Virus record (IMG/VR): IMGVR_UViG_3300035660_000002
Coordinates: 62,001 to 126,000 of that record
Length of the DNA: 64,000 nt
Reading direction: 5' to 3' (one strand)
Source of the DNA: a virus
This document shows positions 4,510 to 43,972 of the stretch, in pieces. How positions within the stretch are numbered: position 1 is the stretch's first letter; every line of letters begins with the position of its first letter. The position numbers and the translations under genes were made by a program. The notes under the pieces are model-generated. The model saw nothing but the letters and a program-made list of their open reading frames with translations, was not told the DNA's origin and did not search any database.

Positions 4510-4538
4510 ATTGTATTATACCCTATACACAAAGTCAA
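4510..4538 (-). promoter_or_regulatory. sigma70-type promoter for HNH gene
   Basis: On the minus strand TTGACT (-35, 4533-4538) is followed after 17 bases by TACAAT (-10, 4510-4515). A perfect TATAAT (4515-4520) overlaps it, but its 12-base spacing is too short to use. The promoter overlaps the deformylase stop codon at 4535 and lies 26 bases before the HNH start at 4484. Confidence 0.65.
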
Positions 4539-5107
4539 CTCTTAAAATGCTCTTTGCACTTTTTGTACTTAATTTTTATTCCTTTATCCGCACACCAAGG
4601 ACAAGGCGCATTGCGTCCTGTTTCCTTGGGCTTTTCCTGCTCTGGTGCCCTTTTATCTGTTATTATGACACCCATTCCATGATCAACTTCATGGGCCATG
4701 ACCACGGCCTCAAATCCATAGAAAACGGCCTTCTGCTGTATCTTCAGGTCGTAGTCCATCCATTCTGCCGTCACCACTCTGTACCTAATTGTATCCACAA
4801 AAGTATCCGGCAGGCTTAGGCATCCTTCCTTCATCATGATCCCCGGCTCCTCGAACTTCAAAATCTTCGGATTAATCATGTTGAGATGAACTGCGTGAAT
4901 ATGCTGCTTCTCGTTCTCCGGGATCCTTATAATGCATGCGTTCAGTGCATAGCCGATCTGGCTTCCATGCAGGCCCACGCCCGGGCGCTTGCTCTCTTTT
5001 AGCGTGCTCTCGAGCTGCCCGAATATGTTAAGGCGCTCGCACTCTTCGATCGTTGTGTCCTTACTGACTTTCCGCAGTTGCAGGATGTCCTGTACTATGA
5101 ATGCCAT
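4535..5107 (-). CDS. def: peptide deformylase with SEC-C-like zinc tail
   Basis: Removes the N-formyl group from nascent proteins. All three deformylase motifs are present in the 190-residue product: GVGLHGSQ (43-50, against the usual GxGLAAxQ), EGCLS (94-98, metal-ligand Cys) and HEVDH (139-143, two metal-ligand His and the catalytic Glu). Residues 164-186 add GRNAPCPWC....YKKC, the pattern of the SEC-C zinc motif found on SecA and other proteins. A fusion with deformylase is unusual. The ATG at 5107 overlaps the previous stop as TGATG and follows GAGGAGGAGG, so an earlier in-frame ATG is not used. Phage deformylases are known to favour synthesis of particular host or phage proteins; the role of the tail is unknown. 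Confidence 0.93.
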   Translation of the reverse strand: MAFIVQDILQLRKVSKDTTIEECERLNIFGQLESTLKESKRPGVGLHGSQIGYALNACIIRIPENEKQHIHAVHLNMINPKILKFEEPGIMMKEGCLSLPDTFVDTIRYRVVTAEWMDYDLKIQQKAVFYGFEAVVMAHEVDHGMGVIITDKRAPEQEKPKETGRNAPCPWCADKGIKIKYKKCKEHFKS

Positions 5108-5841
5108 CAGATACTTTCCTCCTCCTCTGTGTACTTCTTTGTCAGACACTCTTCGATCATCTGCATGGCCTTGTCGAATTCATACTTCTTCTCCGCCTCT
5201 TCCGGCTTATTGAGAGCGTCTGTCAGCTCACGCAGAAACATCGTGTCGATGCCCATCATCTGCTTACGCAGGTCGGCCATCGTTGTCATGCCAAGTTTCT
5301 CGATGCGTAGTCCTATCTTTAACGCCTCTACGCCGGACATCTTATATCCTCTGGCCATGAACTTCCTGGTCCTGAACAGAGCGCATATCGGATACCCCGA
5401 GTTAATATTGAACACCAATCGGCGCTGTGCGATGTGCCGCAGGAAGTCAGGATGCAAAAGCATCCCTTCCCCATGAAAATCATACGCCCCCATGCATATA
5501 GTAAAGTCGAACTTTTCCAGCACATCCCGAACCTCCCCCATCATCTCAACCATCTTAATCACCTGATACGTCCTGTCCTTGTAACGATAGGTGACCGCAC
5601 AGTCTGTTTCAGACAGCACCTTGTTCGGCTGATCCGGATGATAGTTGCACTTGCTCATGAAGAACTGCATCAGCGTGCTGCAGTTTCCCACGCTTCTCGA
5701 GTATATGTCGTAGTCCTTGATCGCGGCCCCGCTGTACACAGAGGTGATTGCGCCCCCCGCTATGAATGCCTTACACGCCCTCAGCTCCTGCTGTACTTCG
5801 GGATCTATGTTTTTTAGTAGCAGATATCGTTCTCTATCCAT
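5107..5841 (-). CDS. nucleotidyltransferase-fold protein
   Basis: 244 residues from the ATG at 5841, behind AAAGGAGTGCTGTAGAT; an earlier in-frame start lies inside the preceding gene. Residues 26-47 (FIAGGAITSVYSGAAIKDYD) have the GG...DxD signature of the polymerase-beta/poly(A) polymerase nucleotidyltransferase fold, with D43 and D45 as likely metal ligands. A later FDFTICMGAYDF would supply the third acidic residue. Similar stand-alone proteins are common in phages and their substrate is not known. The C-terminus is helical and acidic. Its stop overlaps the deformylase start, suggesting coupled translation. Confidence 0.65.
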   Translation of the reverse strand: MDRERYLLLKNIDPEVQQELRACKAFIAGGAITSVYSGAAIKDYDIYSRSVGNCSTLMQFFMSKCNYHPDQPNKVLSETDCAVTYRYKDRTYQVIKMVEMMGEVRDVLEKFDFTICMGAYDFHGEGMLLHPDFLRHIAQRRLVFNINSGYPICALFRTRKFMARGYKMSGVEALKIGLRIEKLGMTTMADLRKQMMGIDTMFLRELTDALNKPEEAEKKYEFDKAMQMIEECLTKKYTEEEESI

Positions 5842-5843
5842 AT

Positions 5844-6155
5844 CTACAGCACTCCTTTCTCCACCAGTTTTGCCATAGCAAGTTTGCTTGGCTCGTTCTT
5901 GCCGTTTTCCCACCGCATTACTTCCATCATACTGACTCCAAGGATAAAAGCCAGTCCTTTCAGCGTGAGTCTGCGCTCCTCGCGGTGCTCCCTGATCTTG
6001 GCGCTGATCCTGCTCATATCTTCATCCCACACCTGGTAGTGCTTGAGCCTTTTATAGAGGTGCTGCGCCTCTTTGTAGCTTATGTGCCAGCTCTGCCTGC
6101 CAAGTATTAATATGAACCTTGTCGGGTGCTGCCTGTCTCTTTTTATGTCCAACAT
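5844..6155 (-). CDS. XRE-type helix-turn-helix protein
   Basis: 103 residues. The C-terminal half (about 55-103) is a Cro/C1-type helix-turn-helix: RRLTLKGLAFILGVSMMEVM followed by RWENGKNEPS, where W-E-x-G-x-x-x-P is diagnostic. The N-terminal 45 residues, ILILGRQSWHISYKEAQHLY, form a separate small domain. The overall form resembles short HigA/YiaG-like regulators or antitoxins, but no toxin partner gene is next to it. The start follows AAAGGCGCAT, directly after the 53-residue gene. Confidence 0.8.
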   Translation of the reverse strand: MLDIKRDRQHPTRFILILGRQSWHISYKEAQHLYKRLKHYQVWDEDMSRISAKIREHREERRLTLKGLAFILGVSMMEVMRWENGKNEPSKLAMAKLVEKGVL

Positions 6156-6165
6156 ATGCGCCTTT

Positions 6166-6327
6166 CTATATCTCTGTGATTATTACGCGAAGCTTCTTCT
6201 TGAACGTTCCTTCCCTACTGCTGTTTACTAAAGGGAAGTTTATCATCTTGTCGACATTGTTGAACGTGACCGCCCACCATGTAGCGCCGTATCCTACGTA
6301 GGACTTTCTTCTCTTTTCTATCTTCAT
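6166..6327 (-). CDS. hypothetical protein, 53 aa
   Basis: A short gene read from ATG 6327, which overlaps the stop of the 69-residue gene as ATGA. The product starts with a run of basic residues (KIEKRRK), contains YGATWWAVTF, and ends KKKLRVIITEI. It is basic and probably a small beta protein. The clean four-base overlap and the gene-to-gene spacing support it as real. No family is recognised. Confidence 0.6.
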   Translation of the reverse strand: MKIEKRRKSYVGYGATWWAVTFNNVDKMINFPLVNSSREGTFKKKLRVIITEI

Positions 6328-6533
6328 GATATGATTCCTTCTACCTTTAAGTTTACTGCGTCCTTTGCTGTGTAATCAAAGTTATGAAGCTCTATGATAC
6401 CTGTTTCGGAATCTTTCAGCTGTATCTGAATCATGGCCTTGTGAACGTTCATGTACTCCAGTTGCCGTCCATCGAACATTCCCTTAAAGTCTTCGATCCA
6501 TTGATTCAGAGTCTTTTTCTTTTCGCTATTCAT
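6324..6533 (-). CDS. hypothetical protein, 69 aa
   Basis: A small soluble protein. A charged helix at the N-terminus (NSEKKKTLNQWIEDFKGMF) is followed by beta-strand-like stretches (AMIQIQL, TGIIELHNF). The start is preceded by GGGG only, so translation is likely coupled to the ComM-like gene that ends two bases upstream. No family is recognised. Confidence 0.65.
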   Translation of the reverse strand: MNSEKKKTLNQWIEDFKGMFDGRQLEYMNVHKAMIQIQLKDSETGIIELHNFDYTAKDAVNLKVEGIIS

Positions 6534-6535
6534 GT

Positions 6536-7228
6536 TTAACCCCAGAGATTCCGATCGAGGCTGCGGTAGCTGATTGCCTCCGATATATGATGCGCCTCGA
6601 TTACCCCCTTGTCGTCCATGGCTGCTATGGTCATCGCAACTCGCATCATCTTGTCGTAGGCCTTTGGCGATATGCCCAGTTCGAGAATCGCCAGCTTCAA
6701 GAGTTCGCCCGCTTCTTTATCCATATCAGGATCCCCTGTGATCGCCGGAACGAGTTTCTTTCTCCACTCCAGTATTTTGCCTCTTGCTATTACGACACGC
6801 TTTGATATATCCTCGCTCGGCTCGCCGATCCGCTTGGCCGCGTATTCTTTGTTCAGGAACGGAACTTCGATGTGGATGTCCGTTCTGTCGAGTATGGTCG
6901 ACGGTATACTGCCCAGATGATGCTGTATCTGAACCGGCGTGCATTTACACATCTTTTTAGGATGCGTGAAGTTGCCGCACTGGCATGGCCACATCATCGC
7001 TATCAGTAGAGGGATGCTGCCATTCACATACAGCTTGCTGTTCGTCGCATCCTCGACGATCTGATAGTCGCCCTCGTATATCGTCTTGAACCTTCTGGCC
7101 AGTGCCATCATGTCCTTGACGGACGGCCCGATCAGCATAAAGCTGTGCCCACCTGTCGCCGCTACCTCCATGCCTCGCTTAACATGCTCCTGACCGAGAA
7201 TATCTGATAAACACATACTTTTACTCAT
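6536..7228 (-). CDS. degenerate ComM/YifB-like (Mg-chelatase family) protein
   Basis: 230 residues, about half the usual ComM/YifB length of about 500. It keeps recognisable pieces of that AAA+ family: DILGQEHVKRGMEVAATGGH at the N-terminus, a four-Cys cluster (82, 84, 94, 96), then STILDRTDIHIEVP (sensor region), and a C-terminal lid with ISPKAYDKMMRVAMTIAAMD and AISYRSLDR. The Walker A loop has become GPSVKDMM with no GKT/S, and the Walker B segment is missing. It therefore should not hydrolyse ATP. It could be an inhibitor or a subunit that mixes with the host hexamer, which in bacteria acts in branch migration during DNA uptake. The start follows AAAGGAGAATGCA. Confidence 0.75.
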   Translation of the reverse strand: MSKSMCLSDILGQEHVKRGMEVAATGGHSFMLIGPSVKDMMALARRFKTIYEGDYQIVEDATNSKLYVNGSIPLLIAMMWPCQCGNFTHPKKMCKCTPVQIQHHLGSIPSTILDRTDIHIEVPFLNKEYAAKRIGEPSEDISKRVVIARGKILEWRKKLVPAITGDPDMDKEAGELLKLAILELGISPKAYDKMMRVAMTIAAMDDKGVIEAHHISEAISYRSLDRNLWG

Positions 7229-7292
7229 TGCATTCTCCTTTCACAATTGCTTTAAATTTACTCCATGATCCGAACATACTTATTACATAAAT

Positions 7293-7966
7293 GGTTTTCA
7301 TAATCTCACCGGTCTGCATTGCATACTTGGTTTTCAAATTGACGTCGGCTTGCATTATCTATCTGGGTTTCATTTCGCTTATGGCTTGCAAATCATTACT
7401 GGGTTCCATTCGTCCAGTGGCTCGCATTGACAACTTGGTTTTCAAATATTCGACGGCTCGCAAGCTGTATATGGTTTTCATAGTGTATGTGGCTTGCAGT
7501 ACTTTACTGGTTTTCATGTTTCAAAGGGCTTGCATTCATTGCCTGGTGTTCAAAATTAGCTCGGCTCGCAATCGTTCTATGGGTTTCGTATATAAAATGG
7601 CTTGCATGCCAAACACGGGTTTCAATTGTTTCATGGCTCACAAACTCTTTTTGGGTTCCACTCTTGCCTTGACTCACATCTACTAACCGGGTTTCAATTC
7701 TTTCGTGGTTCGCAGCCTAAGACAGGGTTTCACTACCATATTGGCTCGCACGCATGCCTTGGTTTTCAGACCCAGGGTGGCTTGCACATCTATGTTGGTG
7801 TTCACATTTCGTCTGGCTCGCAAGCAGGACATGGTTTTCATAAGCTATTCGGCTTGCATCCTTCTTTTGTTTTTCATTGTTCACTTGGCTCGCACCCTCA
7901 TTTTGGTTTTCAAGCATCATGCGGCTCACAAACTGTCAATGGGTTTCATGACTGTCACGGTCTACG
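7293..7966 (-). repeat. TIGR-like dual-guide array: 19 units of 36 bp
   Basis: Read on the plus strand, half-sites begin at 7293 and every 18 bases to 7959 with no phase slip. Even positions are type A: GGTTTTCA (8 of 19), GGGTTTCA (5), and single or double variants. Odd positions are type B: GGCTTGCA (7), GGCTCGCA (6), GGCTCACA (2) and variants. The ten bases between half-sites vary completely, except that the last base is T or C in 35 of 37 cases, leaving about nine variable bases. Type B copies are degenerate at both ends (7311 GGTCTGCA, 7959 GGTCTACG). The last half-site contains the stop codon of the gene at 7962-8918. Period, two alternating motifs and spacer length match tandem interspaced guide RNA arrays processed to 36-nt guides. 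The minus strand is inferred from the neighbouring gene. The short gap 7229-7292 holds only the ComM-like ribosome-binding site. Confidence 0.85.
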
Positions 7967-8918
7967 TCGCTACGCCTGCCGTTTCGTGATGCACATGACC
8001 CAACTTCTCCTCTTGATATGGTGGCCTTGGCGTCTGCCCTTCCAGCTTCCACCACGTTGCGTACAGGTCGATCAGGAATATCTTGATCATGTACCTAAGT
8101 GCCTTTGCATGCCTGTGCCCTTTGGTGCATCCAAATGCATCAAGCTTTGCCTTTAACACTTCCTCCCTGTTCGGCTTCGCCTTCTCTTCGTTGTTCAGGT
8201 GATCCACAGGCGCCTTGCTGCATGGCATGTTCGATATACGATGCTTATATTCATCATATATCTTACGGTACCTGGGGTTGTTCTGCTTCAGCAGACTCTC
8301 CCCGAGAATGTGCAGCTTCGCCTTCAGTAGCGGATTCCAGGTAATTTTCTCCCCTTTCCGAAGCTGTTGGATGGCAAACCCGTTCTTTTCTGCTAACCGA
8401 AGTCCGTATCCGCAGTACATCCACAACTTGGATACTGTGGCGAACCTCAAGATATTCCCGATCTCGCTCACCAGAGCGCCTGCCATAGTAGGGCCGATGC
8501 CTTTGATGTGGATAAGGTACTCTGTCCAGATCGGATGGTTCTTTAGCTCTGTCGATATGTCTTTGAGCACCTTCTTCTCTGTTGCTGTAATCTCGTCGAA
8601 ATACCCAAGCAGTTTGTCCTCAACAGCACCTGTTATGGTGTTCGTGAGCTTGCCTGCCTTACTGATCCTGTTGCCAAAGCTCATTCGTATGCTCTGCAGA
8701 TCGTAGAACGTCCTCACCAGCATCTTCATTGCACTTATGGGCAACACTCCAGGATCTTCGTGCTCGGCTACCCTCTCATCATATGATCCGGGCCCGTGTA
8801 TCTCGTCGTAGTCCTTTCGAAGCTGTGCGAGATACGCTTGGCGCTGCTTTTCCCTCTTACTCAACTTTACCTCTGCCGACTCCTCTACTACTTTTTCTTC
8901 CTTCTTCTTTCTACCCAT
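7962..8918 (-). CDS. tas: Tas-like (Nop/IS110-related) guide-RNA-binding protein, no nuclease domain
   Basis: 318 residues from ATG 8918, chosen for its AAAGGAGGG site; the frame also opens upstream at a TTG with no such site. Residues 1-30 are basic and charged. Residues 60-130 form long helices of the coiled-coil kind. Residues 138-157 (HIKGIGPTMAGALVSEIGNI) are a helix-hairpin-helix followed by KLWMYCGYGL, and 195-228 plus 266-294 continue the C-terminal half of IS110/IS116 transposases. The N-terminal DEDD/RuvC domain, any HNH motif and the IS110 catalytic serine are absent. Tas proteins of TIGR systems carry a Nop domain related to IS110 and box C/D proteins, with or without a nuclease. 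This is best read as a guide-directed DNA-binding protein for the adjoining array; a decayed IS110 fragment is the alternative. Confidence 0.8.
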   Translation of the reverse strand: MGRKKKEEKVVEESAEVKLSKREKQRQAYLAQLRKDYDEIHGPGSYDERVAEHEDPGVLPISAMKMLVRTFYDLQSIRMSFGNRISKAGKLTNTITGAVEDKLLGYFDEITATEKKVLKDISTELKNHPIWTEYLIHIKGIGPTMAGALVSEIGNILRFATVSKLWMYCGYGLRLAEKNGFAIQQLRKGEKITWNPLLKAKLHILGESLLKQNNPRYRKIYDEYKHRISNMPCSKAPVDHLNNEEKAKPNREEVLKAKLDAFGCTKGHRHAKALRYMIKIFLIDLYATWWKLEGQTPRPPYQEEKLGHVHHETAGVAT

Positions 8919-9041
8919 GCTACTTACCCTCCTTTTTTTGATATGTACTGCTGCTTCCACACTTTTGGCCGGGGGCTGCCACACTGGGTTGCGATTTAAG
9001 GCGCCACTCCTTTGATAGAGACTCAGCTCCAACCCCCCACG

Positions 9042-9953
9042 TTATTTATAGAAAATGTGTTTCCCTATCTGCACTGTCTTTACCCTGTCCTTTGCCCACC
9101 ATGGCCTTTCAAAATCGGTACTTTCAAAGTAAAGTGCACCCCCGGTTGTGTCCTCGCTGTTGTGCTCAAAGACGTCTGCCACGATCTCTTTTGCTGTCTT
9201 TTCTGCCTCGGGCCCCTCCTTGGCCACGAAGGCGTCGAGATCGTTCCTCTTGAGCCCTGCCAGGCCTGTATTCATGCCCTTTTTGAGCCTATTGCGACAA
9301 ACGCAGGCTGCCGCATATTGGCCCTCAAACCCCTCACCCACGGCTTCGGCTATGATCCCCTTCCATAGGTTCGCCGGTGGCTTCTTGGCCCTGTGCTGGG
9401 CCGGTACGCCTCTTGACATGCCCAAGGCGCTTGCCTCTGCCGGTCCTGCTATCACGGCTATGATCATTAGAGCGCTGCCGAACATCGCGCATATGATCCT
9501 ACGCAAGTTCTGCATCTCAAAATTGCGCCATGCCGATTCTACATACACGAACGGCTCTTTGTAGTGGTAGTGATTCCTGTCTATATGATCCTGCGCTGCT
9601 TTCTCTGTAAGGTACGTTTGGCCGCTGACCGGCACATCCTCGATTGAGTATTCTACCTTCCTGTTTTCAAGTTTGTGTTCTATGATGTCAACGTCAGTCA
9701 GATCTTTTGCATCTTCGGGATTCTCTTCACGGTACTCCGCTATCGCTTCTGCCTCCTCTTTCTCCGATAGTATATGCCCCTCTTTATCCAGCCATCCCCA
9801 CTTATCGCCACAACCTTCTGCCTTAAAAACGATCTGCTTTTGGTACACACAGTATAGAGGATGCGCTGTTAATCTATTATCCTGCGCCATGATCCGTCTC
9901 ATCATGTGTCGCAATAACTCATAGTCTTTTTCTGGTATCGCTATGTTGTTCAT
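9042..9953 (-). CDS. phage domain fused to SleB-type cell wall hydrolase
   Basis: 303 residues. The N-terminal 145 residues match a common stand-alone phage protein (TAHPLYCVY, WGWLDKEG, QTYLTEKAAQDHIDRNHYHY, VYVESAWRNFEM). A hydrophobic segment (about 150-175, ICAMFGSALMIIAVIAGPAE, then ASA) follows. The last 110 residues are Hydrolase_2/SleB: AEAVGEGFEGQYAAACVCRN with the catalytic-type Glu, ALYFES and a terminal IGKHIFY. The hydrolase part, read alone from Met at AWRNFEM, would have a perfect signal peptide. No ribosome-binding site precedes that Met, so a true fusion is favoured, putting one domain in the cytoplasm and the hydrolase outside. The start follows GAGGAAGTCGAT. SleB enzymes cut peptidoglycan. 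Confidence 0.8.
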   Translation of the reverse strand: MNNIAIPEKDYELLRHMMRRIMAQDNRLTAHPLYCVYQKQIVFKAEGCGDKWGWLDKEGHILSEKEEAEAIAEYREENPEDAKDLTDVDIIEHKLENRKVEYSIEDVPVSGQTYLTEKAAQDHIDRNHYHYKEPFVYVESAWRNFEMQNLRRIICAMFGSALMIIAVIAGPAEASALGMSRGVPAQHRAKKPPANLWKGIIAEAVGEGFEGQYAAACVCRNRLKKGMNTGLAGLKRNDLDAFVAKEGPEAEKTAKEIVADVFEHNSEDTTGGALYFESTDFERPWWAKDRVKTVQIGKHIFYK

Positions 9954-10339
9954 ATCGACTTCCTCACTATGTCACATACTTCCTCTTTCAGATCTACTAT
10001 AACCATACCTTTTTTATCATCCCATGCCGCTTTGAACTTCTTGCCAACGAGTTCCTGCACCCCGAAATGCTTTACAAAGGACTGCCCACTCACCTGACAA
10101 GCACGCCCTCCCGATATCTTATAAGAATGCTCCGGACGTGGTGCATTGCTAAACTTTACGCCAATCCTCTGTGTATCCTTGTCATAGCATAATTGGACGA
10201 ACTTAAACTCCTTCATCTTGGCTTCCCTTACCAACTTTGCACTAAACGTGAAGGCCCTACTGGGCTCTATCGCCATAAAAGATACTTTACTCTTTCTGCC
10301 TCTGCCTTCATACTTATTATGCCATCGGATCATTGTCAT
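9950..10339 (-). CDS. hypothetical protein, 129 aa
   Basis: A basic, mostly beta protein with no export signal. It contains RAFTFSAKLVREAKM, FKFVQLCYDKDTQRIGVKF and SGQSFVKHFGV. Its stop overlaps the start of the SleB fusion gene. It begins a few bases after the DUF6166 gene, and an in-frame Met at residue 3 is an alternative start because neither has a clear ribosome-binding site. I do not recognise a family; the form would suit a small nucleic-acid-binding protein. Confidence 0.7.
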   Translation of the reverse strand: MTMIRWHNKYEGRGRKSKVSFMAIEPSRAFTFSAKLVREAKMKEFKFVQLCYDKDTQRIGVKFSNAPRPEHSYKISGGRACQVSGQSFVKHFGVQELVGKKFKAAWDDKKGMVIVDLKEEVCDIVRKSI

Positions 10340-10340
10340 G

Positions 10341-10616
10341 TTATTTCGTCCACGGCCACTCGAACTTGATACTGAAATTCTTGCCCTGTGGCAGCTTTGC
10401 TATAATTTTCTCCTTCAAATCCTGATACCCTGTTGAATCATTGTATAGCCTCAACACGATCGCCAACGCCAGTTGCGCTGGCCCACTTCCAAAATACCCC
10501 CAATTGTATCCATCTGGACTGTGGTTCCTAACCTTCTGGCTTGGTGCCGGGTCCAGTGGCTTCCCGTCCAGCCATACCTCTCTTGTCGATGCTTTGCCTA
10601 TCAGAGTATGCTTCAC
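10341..10616 (-). CDS. DUF6166-type protein
   Basis: 91 residues from a GTG start behind GGGAGGGTTGTC. The middle, NHSPDGYNWGYFGSGPAQLA, is the hallmark of the DUF6166 family, common on phages and plasmids: nHS..G..WGY.GsGPaQLAlAi. The N-terminal V-W-L-D-G-K-P-L strand pair and terminal lysine-rich helix also fit. Family function is unknown. It shares GTGA with the stop of the 57-residue gene upstream. Confidence 0.8.
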   Translation of the reverse strand: MKHTLIGKASTREVWLDGKPLDPAPSQKVRNHSPDGYNWGYFGSGPAQLALAIVLRLYNDSTGYQDLKEKIIAKLPQGKNFSIKFEWPWTK

Positions 10617-10786
10617 GACAACCCTCCCTTGAACCGTAATCTTTCTCTTTCTACTTCTTGCCAGTAGTCGATCTTGGCCTCAAACTCCGCTACCTCTTTA
10701 TCATTGAGCACGATCCTCTTGCCTGTGCTGAATGTCAGGTAGCCGCGCTTCTTTCCGTTCTTGAACACCTTTATGCCGTATGTCAT
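10613..10786 (-). CDS. hypothetical protein, 57 aa
   Basis: Read from ATG 10786 behind AAAGGATAG, ending in a TGA that overlaps the GTG start of the DUF6166 gene. The product begins with a beta hairpin (TYGIKVFKNGKKRGYLTF) and ends in a charged helix (EVAEFEAKIDYWQEVERERL). It is soluble. Tight packing on both sides supports it as a gene; its function is unknown. Confidence 0.65.
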   Translation of the reverse strand: MTYGIKVFKNGKKRGYLTFSTGKRIVLNDKEVAEFEAKIDYWQEVERERLRFKGGLS

Positions 10787-39564: not shown

Positions 39565-40543
39565 GAGTTTCCCTCTTTGATATCTTGCACGAACATACAC
39601 GACGTATTCTGTCGTACCGGTCGTTATCCATTATCTGCTCCAGAGTATTCTCACTCAGGTTGCCTATCGCCTTACACTCGTGACAGGAACAGAAATAAAT
39701 CTGCCCATCAACATCCACCTTTATAAAGCTACGGGATATGGGACAGTATTCTTTACGCCTCATCATAGCCCAGAGGTTTGCTATCTTTACCTTAGTTCCT
39801 GCTCCTAAGGCGGTAAGAGGATCCATGACACAGTAGACTGCTCTCATTGGGCTGATAAGAGCAGAGGTTCTTCGGTGGTAGTCCAACCATAGATCATAGT
39901 TAATCTTGTAGTGACCATGAACTAAATTATGGATATATTCCCTATCCACCGGGGGAGCCTCAAACTTAAGGGGCCTGTCGAGGCACTCCAAGTACTGGGC
40001 TCCATGAAATATGATACCCTCTACCCCCAGCTTCTCGCCTAGCTTCATCATCCGTTGCATATCATAGAAGTTATAGTTGCTTATGGTCATACGTATCGTG
40101 ACCCTCTTCTTGTTCTTCACAAAGAAGGAGATATTCTCGAGTACCTTTTCATAGTTACATTGTGGCCTCATAAACTCTTGTAGTGCCTTGGTAGAACCAT
40201 CAAGAGAGACTATGAAACGTACGTCTGCGCTCACCATAAACTCACGCTGTCTATTGGTGATAACAGAGAAGTTGCTCTCAATTGTAGTCTTAAAGTCATA
40301 CTTCTTCATATCGTAAAGAACCTCATCTATATACTTACAGGCAAAGGCCTCTCCCCCAGACAGTAGGTCTAAAATATTAAGTTTGGGAAACACCTTGTTC
40401 CTCAGCTCTTCATATATCCTATGATCCAAATCGATTATGCTTGGTAAAGTCTCAGGTTCATTGGAATGCCAACAGGTGCGACAGTGACTATTGCACCTAT
40501 TGGTTAGACCTAGCTTGAGATATCTGACTGAATCCACCTTCAT
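39545..40543 (-). CDS. radical SAM enzyme, tandem paralogue
   Basis: 332 residues. Cys17/21/24 form the CxxxCxxC motif (TNRCNSHCRTCWHS), LDLLSGGEAFACK is the SAM-binding GGE, and the C-terminus carries YCPISRSFIKVDVDG, CSCHECKAIGNLSE and RRVCSCKIS as possible SPASM clusters. Residues LGLTNRC, I.DLL.GGE, FIVSLD.....QEF.RP and SNYNFYDM are shared with the neighbouring enzyme, so the two arose by duplication. Probably both act on the same substrate or on successive steps. Confidence 0.85.
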   Translation of the reverse strand: MKVDSVRYLKLGLTNRCNSHCRTCWHSNEPETLPSIIDLDHRIYEELRNKVFPKLNILDLLSGGEAFACKYIDEVLYDMKKYDFKTTIESNFSVITNRQREFMVSADVRFIVSLDGSTKALQEFMRPQCNYEKVLENISFFVKNKKRVTIRMTISNYNFYDMQRMMKLGEKLGVEGIIFHGAQYLECLDRPLKFEAPPVDREYIHNLVHGHYKINYDLWLDYHRRTSALISPMRAVYCVMDPLTALGAGTKVKIANLWAMMRRKEYCPISRSFIKVDVDGQIYFCSCHECKAIGNLSENTLEQIMDNDRYDRIRRVCSCKISKRETHAVKGN

Positions 40544-41925
40544 ACCATCACCGCTTGTATTAAATCTCTATATTTTATAACACCATGACGATCAACCAAA
40601 TGGCTACAGTATTTCTGTACTATTTCATGCAACTCCTCTACTCTAAACTCCTCGGAAGCCAAGGGATATAGAACGGGATGTAGCTCCTCAAGTGTCCAGT
40701 CTTTGCCTAAGAACTCACGCGCATACTCAAACTCCTGAGTCTTTGGCACGGGAGTAAACATTAGAACCACAGGTAACGCCCCCGCGTCCTCGACTATCTG
40801 TATAGTCTCACAGGCTTCCTCATATGTTTGTCCTAAACAACCTATCATAACGAAGGAGTTCAGGACCAAGCTCTTTTTAAGAGACCCTATTTTTGTCTTC
40901 CAAAACTCTGCGTCTAAGCGCCTATGCCACCTTGTTAACAGCTTCTCAGATGAACTCTCAATCGGCACTCCAATACTACGAAATCCTGCTTCATGCATCA
41001 GCTCTAATATCTCGGTGGTCAGAGGCTGCGGATCTAGCCCCCCATATGCTTTCAGGTAGAACTTTAGATTCCTCTTCACGATACCCTCAAGGATTACCTT
41101 GAAGTGCTTCTCATAGTTTACAAGGAAATTGGAATCCAGGAACTCTATCTCTTTAATTCCATTAGCATAATAATACTCGAGCTCATCCAATACATCCATA
41201 GGATCGCGCCGTATATGCTCATGTCCCTCTACCACAGGAACCGCACAATACCCACAACTATTGGGACATCCTAGTGCTGTAAGTATCCCCACCAAACAGG
41301 GGTGCTCTTCATATAATGAAAGGTCTATGCGAGTAAAATCATCCTCGCACCCTTTTGACTTGGTTACTACTTTATCCGCACCCAACTTCTGGGCGTGCTC
41401 TGTGCATAGTGTAGGATATAGACCACCTATCCATATTTCTGCCGAGGAGAAGTTCTCCCTTGTGGCATCTATGGTTTCTTTAACCCCCTCCCATAGGTAT
41501 GTGAATGCTTGGGATATGACCACCACATCTGGCTGAAATTCCAACAATTTCTTCACATATGAGGATAACGGTCGGCCTATACGCACAAGTTGACGGGTAA
41601 AGTGCTCCTTCTCCCAATTTCCACACTTTCTCTCCCCCATGGGAGTGAGTATCTTTTCACCCTTATAGTATAACTCCCCGTCCACCAACTCCCATATATT
41701 CTTACAGTTCCAGATTGACTCTCTTCCTTTATTGCACTCCTCAAAGGTCTTGTAGTTATCACCCCGGCAGCGATACCCAGGAAGATCAGGTCTTATGTTA
41801 AACACAGCAACCTCGTGCCCCTGCTTCTTGTACATAGAAGCTATACGGTAGGTGGGAATCATAGTTGCTCTACTTACCATCTCGGTATAGCCAAACTCTG
41901 CGGGGTAAACAACTAATATTTTCAT
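40540..41925 (-). CDS. B12-binding-type radical SAM enzyme
   Basis: 461 residues. An N-terminal flavodoxin-like segment (KILVVYPAEFGYTEM...ISQAFTYLWEGVKETIDATR...IWIGGLYPTL) follows the layout of cobalamin-binding radical SAM enzymes. The Elp3-like core has LGCPNSCGYC (Cys220/224/227) and IKEIEFLDSNF. This subgroup (for example BchE and relatives) often carries out methyl transfers or ring changes, but no specific activity can be assigned. The expected DxHxxG cobalamin ligand is not obvious, so cobalamin binding is uncertain. Confidence 0.78.
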   Translation of the reverse strand: MKILVVYPAEFGYTEMVSRATMIPTYRIASMYKKQGHEVAVFNIRPDLPGYRCRGDNYKTFEECNKGRESIWNCKNIWELVDGELYYKGEKILTPMGERKCGNWEKEHFTRQLVRIGRPLSSYVKKLLEFQPDVVVISQAFTYLWEGVKETIDATRENFSSAEIWIGGLYPTLCTEHAQKLGADKVVTKSKGCEDDFTRIDLSLYEEHPCLVGILTALGCPNSCGYCAVPVVEGHEHIRRDPMDVLDELEYYYANGIKEIEFLDSNFLVNYEKHFKVILEGIVKRNLKFYLKAYGGLDPQPLTTEILELMHEAGFRSIGVPIESSSEKLLTRWHRRLDAEFWKTKIGSLKKSLVLNSFVMIGCLGQTYEEACETIQIVEDAGALPVVLMFTPVPKTQEFEYAREFLGKDWTLEELHPVLYPLASEEFRVEELHEIVQKYCSHLVDRHGVIKYRDLIQAVMV

Positions 41926-42629
41926 TTCACTCTTCTCTCTATGGCCCCACTTACATCAGTAATATACTTAAACAATATCTCCCTATCAATCTCACAGTAG
42001 TCAACCTTGATATAGAAATACAGCTTCATTCTGTTAAACATATAATCGGTATAACTCACATTGTAGGCTACCTTGAAGGGCCCTACTGGAAAATTATACT
42101 TTGGGTATACTTCAGTGAACGCTTCGTCCAATAGTTTAAGTATCTTAGGTTCAATTCCTCTCTTGTATACCCTGAAGCTCACATACAGACATCTCTGACC
42201 GTGACCATCGCATGAAGCGAATGTTCTAACGTGCTTAATCCTATTAACAGCATCGACGAGAGGCTTTACGCCTCGGTCGATACTGAACGTGTGCCTAAAG
42301 GGACCAGCGTGGCACTCTCCTGATACAGAGTTTCTCTTTGGAACCTTGATATCAGGATACTTGGCCATCAGGTCTTCGTCACTCTGTTCCAAGAAATACT
42401 TTGGTTTTATCATTGCTATCATCTTGGGAACATCAAGAGAGCTTATGGCATCAGCGAACACTACATCTCCCTTACGATCTATCCTCTTCAATAGTTTAGA
42501 TTCAACGAAAGAGATATCACCGACTTTGAACAGAAATTCATTGAACTCTCTGCTCATAGTCTTGACATCTATCATATGTTCCTTATCCTCAATGAAAAGG
42601 ATTAGGTTGAACCAAACTTGGTACTTCAT
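41922..42629 (-). CDS. hypothetical protein between radical SAM genes
   Basis: 235 residues. No known family. Visible features are a Phe/Tyr-rich opening (KYQVWFNLILFIEDKEHMID), GECHAGPFRHTFSIDRGVKP in the middle, then VRTFASCDGHGQRCLYVSFR and a C-terminus rich in aromatic residues. The C-D-G-H-G and two further His/Cys might bind a metal. Overlaps of four bases on both sides place it firmly in the radical SAM operon, so it may be an accessory or substrate-binding protein of that pathway. Confidence 0.6.
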   Translation of the reverse strand: MKYQVWFNLILFIEDKEHMIDVKTMSREFNEFLFKVGDISFVESKLLKRIDRKGDVVFADAISSLDVPKMIAMIKPKYFLEQSDEDLMAKYPDIKVPKRNSVSGECHAGPFRHTFSIDRGVKPLVDAVNRIKHVRTFASCDGHGQRCLYVSFRVYKRGIEPKILKLLDEAFTEVYPKYNFPVGPFKVAYNVSYTDYMFNRMKLYFYIKVDYCEIDREILFKYITDVSGAIERRVK

Positions 42630-43972
42630 TTAGACGTACTTTCCTTCTCCTCTTTTGAAACCGTTATTTCCGCAATTTTCTTCAGTAACGGAATGATTAT
42701 CTCATTCTGGTGCCTGATCTCCGTTAACGTCTTGAGTAGCACATTCATACCCTGAATCATTAGATCTTCTGCATCTACCCCTAGCACCTTCGCACCCTTG
42801 CTCATGACTATCCCCCTTCTTTTGCTTGTTGGCGATTTGTAAACTGAAAATGCACTCAATGTGTTATTACACTCCTCAAAGAGCCTGTCAGAATATTTAT
42901 TCACGAACTCTTGATTCATCCTGCAAAACTCGCAATACCCTGTTGTGGGTTTTGCCGCAGCTTTTCCCTCTAAGTACTTGTTTGTGGCAAAGCACCTAAC
43001 ACAGGTATACGAGGTGCATTTCATGCAATCCTTGTTAGAGAAGTGCACTGCCTTTATCTCCTTTAGTTTATCGTTATTAGGATCTACCCAACTCTGTACG
43101 TCTCCTAATTTATAGTCAAAGTGTTTACGGTACGCTATAAAACGATGACAGGGATATATCTCACCATCTACAGTTACCCCTACCATCTGATCTCCCGCAT
43201 GACACCCTTTGTAGTCACCCGGACTATAACAACCTACTCTCCTCTCATTCGCTTCAATAAGCGGAGAATTGAGGAGACTCAAGAACTTAACCGGTGTTGT
43301 CTTTAACTGCTCGAAGAACAATTTGTATATTTTCTCAAGTTGCTCCTTGGCTTTGTCCAAAACTGGATTCCAATCCTCCTCTATAATTGGCGTCATTTGA
43401 ACTACATCAGCCATATCAGAAAGAGCGACATAATCATCATAGAATTTGTCCACCCGAGAGGGTAACAGGGTTTCTCTCACCTGTATGTCGGGAATTATAC
43501 TGCGAAACTTTTTTATATTACCGGCAATAAGCTTAAAAGAATCCTGACCTCCGATCATAGGTCTACTTTGATTGTGTGATTCTTCACAACCATCCACACT
43601 TATCTGAAGCTTTAACCTATGCCCCATCGAGGCTTTATACCTACCAAGGAATTCGTGAATATCCTCATTCCACACAGTACCATTCGATAGAATATATATT
43701 GAGAATACTATCCCTTTCTTGCGCAGACCCTCTACGTATTCAAAGGTGTTCTTCATTACCTCCCAATTTAGGAAGGGTTCACCACCAAAGAAATTGATAT
43801 TGAAGTGCGAACCAAGATTGGCCTGATGTCCTGGCTCATAATGCGCCACCATCTGGTCTATAAGCTTCTCCATAGTTCCCCATTCCATATCACCTGTTCG
43901 GTCTTGTTCGTAACAATAAGAGCAATTCAGGTTGCACCTATTTGTTATCAGAACGTACACACTACTGATCAT
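42626..43972 (-). CDS. radical SAM/SPASM peptide-modifying enzyme (anSME/RiPP-maturase type)
   Basis: 448 residues behind GGGGAGGTAACAGTC. CxxxCxxC at Cys13/17/20 (TNRCNLNCSYCYEQ), FFGGEPFLNWEVMK and LQISVDG are core motifs; GCHAGDQMVGVTVDGEIYPC then CMKCTSYTCVRC and YCEFCRMNQEF form the SPASM domain with auxiliary 4Fe-4S clusters. This is the architecture of sulfatase-maturing enzymes and RiPP maturases that crosslink Cys or other side chains in peptides. The C-terminal 90 residues are a helical extension. Occurrence in a phage next to a Cys-rich structural protein (45509) makes peptide modification plausible but not proven. Confidence 0.85.
   Translation of the reverse strand: MISSVYVLITNRCNLNCSYCYEQDRTGDMEWGTMEKLIDQMVAHYEPGHQANLGSHFNINFFGGEPFLNWEVMKNTFEYVEGLRKKGIVFSIYILSNGTVWNEDIHEFLGRYKASMGHRLKLQISVDGCEESHNQSRPMIGGQDSFKLIAGNIKKFRSIIPDIQVRETLLPSRVDKFYDDYVALSDMADVVQMTPIIEEDWNPVLDKAKEQLEKIYKLFFEQLKTTPVKFLSLLNSPLIEANERRVGCYSPGDYKGCHAGDQMVGVTVDGEIYPCHRFIAYRKHFDYKLGDVQSWVDPNNDKLKEIKAVHFSNKDCMKCTSYTCVRCFATNKYLEGKAAAKPTTGYCEFCRMNQEFVNKYSDRLFEECNNTLSAFSVYKSPTSKRRGIVMSKGAKVLGVDAEDLMIQGMNVLLKTLTEIRHQNEIIIPLLKKIAEITVSKEEKESTSK

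What the first reader, a model, noticed from the sequence alone, without database searches (positions are those of the whole stretch)
7293..7966. Array motif differs at its ends and shows an extra conserved pyrimidine
Type B half-sites are degenerate at both array ends (GGTCTGCA at 7311 and GGTCTACG at 7959), while inner copies are mostly GGCTTGCA or GGCTCGCA. The base before each half-site is T or C in 35 of 37 cases, so the effective spacer is nine bases. Terminal decay plus uniform inner copies suggests the array grows or is homogenised internally. The last half-site contains the tas stop codon, so gene and array share bases.
Basis: seen in the sequence. Interest (0 to 1): 0.7.

Follow-up and report, generated by a model that had tools for sequence, protein, structure and literature searches.

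The report
Phage TIGR guide-RNA array beside tasA
A tailed phage carries a TIGR-Tas locus, a recently described RNA-guided DNA-targeting system, and the "decayed" end of its repeat array looks like a half repeat that also spells the stop codon of the neighbouring protein gene and can still pair with the next repeat.

Summary
The array is real (7292-7966; RNA strand -, inferred). It is a dual-repeat TIGR array directly downstream of a nuclease-less Tas gene (TasA). Type B half-sites are edge repeats, type A are loop repeats, spacers are 9 nt. The extra pyrimidine is the complement of the third base of box C.

The end degeneracy is mostly not decay. In 72 arrays (the window's and 71 relatives) the outer upstream edge tends to keep only its 3' half and the outer downstream edge only its 5' half, as published for TIGR. 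At 7958-7966 the odd letters are the tas stop codon (nt 3-5) and an A6 that can pair with U3 of the next edge. Over 152 arrays A6 covaries with T3 of the following edge only (79 seen, 35 expected; six other lags at or below expectation). The stop-codon overlap recurs in 22 of 105 downstream arrays, the window included.

The 7311 copy is not the array end: a spacer and a perfect loop follow, without a closing edge, so real loss is plausible there.

Relatives duplicate, reorder and replace units, at the ends too. No natural target was found. New member of a known kind.

The parts
7962..8918 (-). tasA: Nop-domain Tas protein of 318 aa without a nuclease domain (ATG at 8918, stop TAG 7964-7962; the open frame could start at TTG 9032)
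   Evidence: Profile of the window protein and 19 relatives finds PDB 9mty (TasR) at E 4e-60, chain residues 114-323, and TasH 21kl at E 1e-43; AlphaFold model pLDDT 80.7, Foldseek best hits TasR and TasH; Pfam Transposase_20 in part
7292..7966 (-). TIGR array: 19 edge repeats, 19 loop repeats, 9-nt spacers, period 36; 18 tigRNA units bounded by edges on both sides plus one unit with no closing edge
7958..7966 (-). first edge, read as a 5'-truncated half-edge (CGTAGACCG); nt 3-5 are the tas stop TAG, A6 can pair with U3 of the next edge
7922..7930 (-). second edge (TGTGAGCCG) with the compensating T3
7706..7714 (-). edge with A6 (TGCGAACCA)
7670..7678 (-). next edge (TGTGAGTCA) with the compensating T3; as degenerate as the 7311 copy
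7310..7318 (-). edge 18 (TGCAGACCG): 5' half intact (closes tigRNA 17), 3' half changed
7292..7300 (-). last loop repeat (TGAAAACCA), perfect; no edge at the expected place after it and no terminator-like site on the - strand in 5000-10700
6536..7228 (-). next gene in the same direction (Mg-chelatase-like), starts 63 nt after the last loop; array probably co-transcribed
   Evidence: co-transcription is inference

Best explanation
The stretch is a dual-repeat TIGR array of a TIGR-TasA system in a contractile-tailed phage. The - strand transcript of tasA and array would be cut in each edge repeat after nt 4 into 36-nt tigRNAs (5 nt of edge, spacer A 9, loop 9, spacer B 9, 4 nt of the next edge). 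In each tigRNA the two edge remnants pair (6:3 and 7:2), and a TasA dimer holds edge and loop. Spacers A and B would pair with opposite strands of one DNA target of the form A-(0-2)-rc(B). Having no nuclease, TasA most likely binds and blocks or bends its target. The first and last edges need only their inner halves; here the unused half of the first edge has become the end of the tas gene. Shown here: anatomy, homology, half-edges, covariation, stop overlap. Inferred from the published TasR, TasH and TasA work: transcription, processing, targeting; the exact cut after nt 4 is inferred from the half-edges and the 36-nt length. Unknown: target and biological effect.
For: Period, repeats and spacers. 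Tas homology by sequence and predicted fold. 72 distinct arrays with an edge near WGCGAGCC beside Tas genes (the caller looks for that edge, so arrays with other edges are missed); all 152 arrays found lie on the strand of tas although both strands were searched. Outer edges of 72 arrays: upstream 3' half 5/5 in 29 and 5' half 4/4 in 1; downstream 5' half 4/4 in 37 and 3' half 5/5 in 1. Covariation A6(i) with T3(i+1): 28 seen, 8.0 expected; 34 v 20.3; 14 v 5.3; pooled 79 v 35.4 sd 3.2 at lag +1, no excess at lags -3 to 0, +2, +3. In the window both A6 edges that have a successor are followed by T3 (P 0.02). Published anatomy and targeting: PMC12045711.
Against: No expression data. By letter count the window's first edge keeps only 3 of 5 letters of its 3' half and 1 of 4 of its 5' half, so it is not among the 41 of 72 clean upstream half-edges; the stop codon and pairing are my account of that. 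C7:G2 covariation is clear in sets 1 and 2 but not in set 3 (2 v 1.2). The last unit lacks a closing edge and there is no terminator-like site, unlike the published typical array. No target in the phage's own record, and only one exact hit for tigRNA 0 in 2.9 million viral contigs, inside an ORF of a contig that looks like a small RNA phage (identification by recall), taken as chance.
Confidence: 0.93

Rival explanations
1. Terminal decay with internal growth or homogenisation: the ends are old and drifting, the inside is young and uniform.
For: The two terminal edges have 4 and 2 mismatches, 13 of 17 inner edges none. L167 holds internally duplicated units.
Against: Terminal loops are perfect. 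The changed letters of the first edge are the stop codon or are compensated by T3 in the next edge. Loss in relatives is one-sided within the edge, as half-edges predict. In the L088 family both first and last units are replaced between phages. The window has no duplicated spacers.
Confidence: 0.07
2. True loss at the 3' end only: the last unit lost its closing edge, so the 3' half of edge 18 is no longer needed and drifts.
For: Edge 18 keeps its 5' half and changes A5 and G6; a perfect loop follows at the right distance but no edge.
Against: One array, one case. The same GACC letters occur in the first edge, so the variant may be tolerated.
Confidence: 0.55
3. The array is a cluster of protein-binding sites (operator or partition array) and not an RNA-coding array.
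For: Regular short alternating repeats beside a gene for a nucleic-acid-binding protein; parB-like neighbours are reported for some TasA loci (PMC12045711).
Against: Base-pair covariation between edges 36 nt apart, in one direction only, makes sense for RNA; all 152 arrays are on the tas strand.
Confidence: 0.02
4. An IS110-family transposase gene with its bridge RNA.
For: Pfam and PHROG call the gene a transposase; IS621 and ISCro4 structures match weakly by sequence and are Foldseek ranks 12-22 at E 0.001 to 0.02.
Against: The profile matches TasR and TasH far better than IS621 (E 4e-60 and 1e-43 v 0.036). The PDB matches start after the first 113 residues of TasR, so no nuclease part is seen. 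A 19-unit array is not a bridge RNA.
Confidence: 0.01

Closest known systems
TIGR-TasA with dual-repeat array (Flavonifractor plautii FpTIGR, PMC12045711)
   Same: Nop-domain protein without nuclease; alternating edge and loop repeats with 9-nt spacers next to the gene
   Different: Here 19 edge and 19 loop repeats (published arrays most often 5-15 units), first edge shares its bases with the tas stop, no recognisable closing edge or terminator. FpTIGR itself was not compared by sequence here.
TIGR-TasR (Thermoproteota TaTasR, PDB 9mty)
   Same: Nop domain homologous (E 4e-60); box D UG and box C CCA in both repeats; A-rich loop; edge-edge pairs seen in its structure appear here as covariation
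   Different: RuvC nuclease of TasR absent in the window protein
TIGR-TasH (Salicola phage CGphi29, L013)
   Same: Nop domain homologous (TasH structures E 1e-43), phage-borne, similar C-terminal tail, 36-nt array in L013
   Different: HNH nuclease at the N terminus of TasH; SpTIGR spacers total 16 nt instead of 18 (PMC12045711)
CRISPR arrays
   Same: Repeat-spacer array beside one effector gene; terminal repeat differs
   Different: Two short alternating repeats, paired 9-nt spacers, half-edges at the ends of related arrays; no adaptation genes among the 10 neighbouring proteins scanned

Membership tests
TIGR-Tas | Nop-domain (Tas) protein related to TasR/TasH | tested here: met
   Profile search 9mty E 4e-60, 21kl E 1e-43; Foldseek on the predicted model, ranks 1-11 all TasR or TasH. 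The box C/D protein Nop5 itself is only rank 37, E 2.1
TIGR-Tas | Array of two alternating 8-12-nt repeats with about 9-nt spacers next to tas | tested here: met
   9-nt edge, 9-nt loop, 9-nt spacers, 19 of each repeat
TIGR-Tas | Box D UG and box C CCA in both repeats | tested here: met
   On the - strand TG at nt 1-2 in 18 of 19 edges and 18 of 19 loops; nt 7-8 CC in 18 of 19 edges and 18 of 19 loops; nt 9 purine in 18 of 19 edges (11 A, 7 G) and 18 of 19 loops (16 A, 2 G)
TIGR-Tas | Edge-edge base pairs within a tigRNA | tested here: met
   Covariation at lag +1 in 152 arrays; window 2 of 2 A6 edges with a successor compensated
TIGR-Tas | Array starts with a 5'-truncated edge | tested here: met
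   CGTA|GACCG at 7958-7966: 5' half 1 of 4 letters, 3' half 3 of 5; upstream outer edges of 41 of 72 arrays keep at least 4 of 5 letters of the 3' half (the window is not one of the 41)
TIGR-Tas | Array ends with a 3'-truncated edge followed by a rho-independent terminator | tested here: not met
   No closing edge after the last loop, no terminator-like site on the - strand there; the paper calls this typical, not required
TIGR-Tas | Processing to 36-nt tigRNAs | not testable with these tools
   Needs RNA sequencing
TIGR-Tas | Tandem targeting of both DNA strands | tested here: inconclusive
   No convincing target in the 133,462-bp record or for tigRNA 0 in viral contigs; the other tigRNAs were not scanned against collections
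TasA subtype | No nuclease domain | tested here: met
   318 aa; PDB matches begin at residue 114 of TasR and 67 of TasH; Pfam finds no nuclease domain
IS110 transposase | N-terminal DEDD catalytic domain | tested here: not met
   Pfam reports only the C-terminal Transposase_20 and a weak HHH match

The most novel reading that the evidence does not exclude
The tas stop codon is placed inside the first edge so that making the first tigRNA cuts the tas message within its own stop codon (TA|G). The message would become non-stop, and Tas level would be tied to array processing: a built-in RNA-level feedback found in several Tas lineages.
Probability: 0.15. Interest if true: 0.7.

Novelty: new member of a known kind. 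Interest (0 to 1): 0.48.

Why it matters
The locus adds a large TasA array to a family whose biology is open. Three results on it and its relatives bear on open questions. Letters that look like repeat decay are base-pair partners in the next repeat, which gives a sequence-only test of where a tigRNA begins and ends. The tas stop codon is repeatedly fused to the first half-edge. Related phages share whole units in changed order, a comparative view of how these arrays change, a matter that PMC12045711 calls an enigma.

Tried and rejected
Promoter targeting. Two window spacers contain TTGACA (-35 box, name from recall), one of them on the other strand. In the first 72 arrays, window included, it was the most enriched hexamer (17 v 3.6; 15, of which 2 from the window, v 3.2 to 3.9 after stricter removal of similar units). 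But at least one of 300 Markov simulations reached a higher best z for some hexamer (7.15 v 5.9), and it did not replicate: 4 v 1.8 in 44 new arrays (P 0.10) and 0 in 36 more (expectation not computed). TATAAT was not enriched in sets 1 and 2. Dropped.

Self-targets. All 19 spacer pairs against the 133,462-bp record in pieces, 0-2 nt gaps: 1 pair with 2 mismatches or fewer (0.3 expected from re-paired spacers), 4 with 3 or fewer (5.2 expected), 18 with 4 or fewer (17.7 expected). No signal.

Palindromic target of tigRNA 0 (TGACAGTCA / TTGACAGTT). One exact hit in viral contigs, in an ORF of a small contig that looks like an RNA phage. Across arrays A and B do not share 6-mers more than chance (5 v 5.2).

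Do halves of the edge travel with their tigRNA when units are shuffled? Of 32 boundaries after a shared unit, 4 keep only the 5' half and 6 only the 3' half; of 34 before one, 2 and 8. Inconclusive.

TasA relatives in plasmids: none. Rfam on 6200-9300: none. PADLOC: none for 4 proteins. Window 1-25000 against phage records by megablast: no match (the tool may leave out records very near the window's own).

Full report
What is there. On the - strand the array reads as 19 edge repeats (consensus TGCRAGCC followed by A or G) alternating with 19 loop repeats (TGAAA, A or C, CC, A), each 9 nt, with 9-nt spacers; the period is 36. In the window the spaced half-site motif occurs 31 times, 30 of them in the array, against 2.3 expected and a maximum of 7 in 100 shuffles. 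The window lies in a virus record of 133,462 bases with tail sheath and baseplate genes.

What it belongs to. The gene at 7962-8918 (-) matches, as a profile with 19 relatives, the solved TasR structure 9mty (E 4e-60, chain residues 114-323) and TasH (21kl and seven more entries, E 1e-43), and IS621 only at E 0.036. The predicted model (pLDDT 80.7, pTM 0.71) has TasR and TasH as Foldseek ranks 1-11; TM-scores are moderate (0.47-0.58 by query length) with rmsd 5.9-8.5, so relative domain positions may differ; IS110-family recombinases follow at ranks 12-22 and Nop5 only at rank 37 with E 2.1. No nuclease domain is seen. With the dual-repeat array this is TIGR-TasA as defined in PMC12045711 (I read the abstract, parts 1-4 of 12 of the text, section 24 and the figure legends, and searched passages; supplements not seen). 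Box D (UG) and box C (CCA) of that paper are nt 1-2 and 7-9 of both repeats here. The extra conserved pyrimidine on the + strand is therefore the complement of the last base of box C: purine in 36 of 38 repeats, and A in about 81% of 721 units of other arrays for both edge and loop. In the window G is commoner at this place in edges (7 of 19) than in loops (2 of 19).

Why the ends look odd. Tas relatives came from six scans of viral contigs (then 65, 66, 72 for replication; at most 80 loci are returned per scan, and searches matched 393 and 133), one genome scan (two loci) and phage records. A scan with the window protein alone found none. Of the first 199 sequences (198 loci, many overlapping, and the window) 106 had a called array and 72 arrays were distinct, the window's included. 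Calling needs at least three edges with 7 of 8 letters of one consensus, so arrays with other edges are missed and outer edges are by construction poorer; the test is which half is lost. Upstream outer edges keep the 3' half (5 of 5 letters in 29 of 72, at least 4 in 41 of 72) and almost never the 5' half (4 of 4 in 1 of 72). Downstream outer edges keep the 5' half (4 of 4 in 37 of 72) and almost never the 3' half (5 of 5 in 1 of 72). The remaining rows fit neither cleanly; some are out of phase. The window's own first edge (1 of 4 and 3 of 5 letters) is among these. The boundary lies between nt 4 and 5, which gives 5+9+9+9+4 = 36 nt, the published tigRNA length. PMC12045711 states the truncated ends without counts in the parts I read.

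Covariation. The TasR structure has two pairs between the edge remnants of one tigRNA, that is, between consecutive edges. If so, nt 6 of edge i should covary with nt 3 of edge i+1, not within the same edge. Against shuffles within each array: A6(i) with T3(i+1) 28 of 35 A6 edges v 8.0 expected (sd 2.1, 0 of 2000 shuffles), same edge 6 v 8.5, reverse direction 13 v 9.3 (845 units). Set 2, 44 new arrays and 455 units unlike the earlier ones: 34 of 55 v 20.3, same edge 18 v 20.2, reverse 21 v 21.8. Set 3, 36 more arrays and 368 units: 14 of 18 v 5.3, same edge 4 v 5.9. Pooled over 152 arrays and 1866 edges (units not made unique across arrays here), lag +1 gives 79 of 112 v 35.4 (sd 3.2); lags -3, -2, -1, 0, +2, +3 are at or below expectation. 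The second pair (C7 with G2) gives 36 v 21.8 and 21 v 9.5 in sets 1 and 2 but only 2 v 1.2 in set 3. In the window two edges with a successor have A6 (at 7958-7966 and 7706-7714), and both are followed by T3 (7922-7930 and 7670-7678; P 0.02); a third T3 (7634-7642) follows a G6, a possible G-U pair.

The shared stop codon. In the window TAG is nt 3-5 of the first edge, so its G replaces the usual A5. Of 152 arrays, 105 are downstream of tas (one search gives 45 upstream and 2 unclear). In 15 of these 105, from 7 of 26 Tas clusters at 50% identity and the window included, the stop is at nt 3-5 (TAA or TGA using A5; TAG in the window). In 7, from 4 clusters, it is at nt 4-6 (TAG, once TAA). No other offset between -12 and +12 holds more than 5 arrays. 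These two registers are those in which a stop can use letters of AGCC. Simple compaction is enough to explain this; a regulatory role is my speculation. The phrase stop codon does not occur in the main text of PMC12045711. Literature searches on TIGR arrays listed no other primary study of array ends or turnover in the held library; the review PMC12385481 was seen in passages only.

The other end. Edge 18 (7310-7318) has an intact 5' half and two changes in its 3' half. It is followed by a spacer and a perfect loop (7292-7300), then nothing like an edge, and no terminator-like site on that strand. The last unit probably cannot mature; drift of the now idle half-edge would follow.

How arrays change. 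In five distinct arrays of one phage family with 98-100% identical Tas (L088, L089, L090, L092, L093) units are shared but in different order: units 5, 6, 7 of L092 correspond to 7, 6, 4 of L089. The first unit is common to three and replaced in two; the last unit is common to two (L088, L089) and differs in the other three. L167 repeats a two-unit block and also reuses single spacers with other partners. Between the 152 arrays 46 unit matches in 16 pairs were found; this is a lower bound, because arrays that shared most units had been dropped before. The window array has no such duplicates: its closest spacers differ at 2 places, as in 208 of 300 shuffles.

Targets. None found: see Tried and rejected. 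The TTGACA lead failed replication and is reported as such.

Noticed in passing
window 6536-7228 (-): A 230-aa Mg-chelatase/ChlI-like protein (Pfam Mg_chelatase and Mg_chelatase_C matches; shorter than ComM as I recall it), directly after the array.
   Followed up: no
window 4535-5149 (-): A phage-borne peptide deformylase.
   Followed up: no
window 40540-41925 and 42626-43972 (-): Two radical-SAM protein genes close together in a phage genome.
   Followed up: no
L003, L005 (Mycobacterium phages BigPaolini and Rich): 76 Mycobacterium phage records carry a Tas relative, in the rows listed annotated as transposase, hypothetical or DNA-binding protein. The two loci fetched do not have 36 among their best periods; they may carry the stem-loop type of array.
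   Followed up: no
arrays: Spacers are poorer in C than the flanking DNA in 48 of 52 arrays; the last spacer base is G in about 60% of 738 units, as if box D were GWG in many arrays, but in only 6 of 38 spacers of the window.
   Followed up: partly
window 7922-7966: The first tigRNA has similar sequence in both spacers (TGACAGTCA, TTGACAGTT), so its target would be an inverted repeat.
   Followed up: partly
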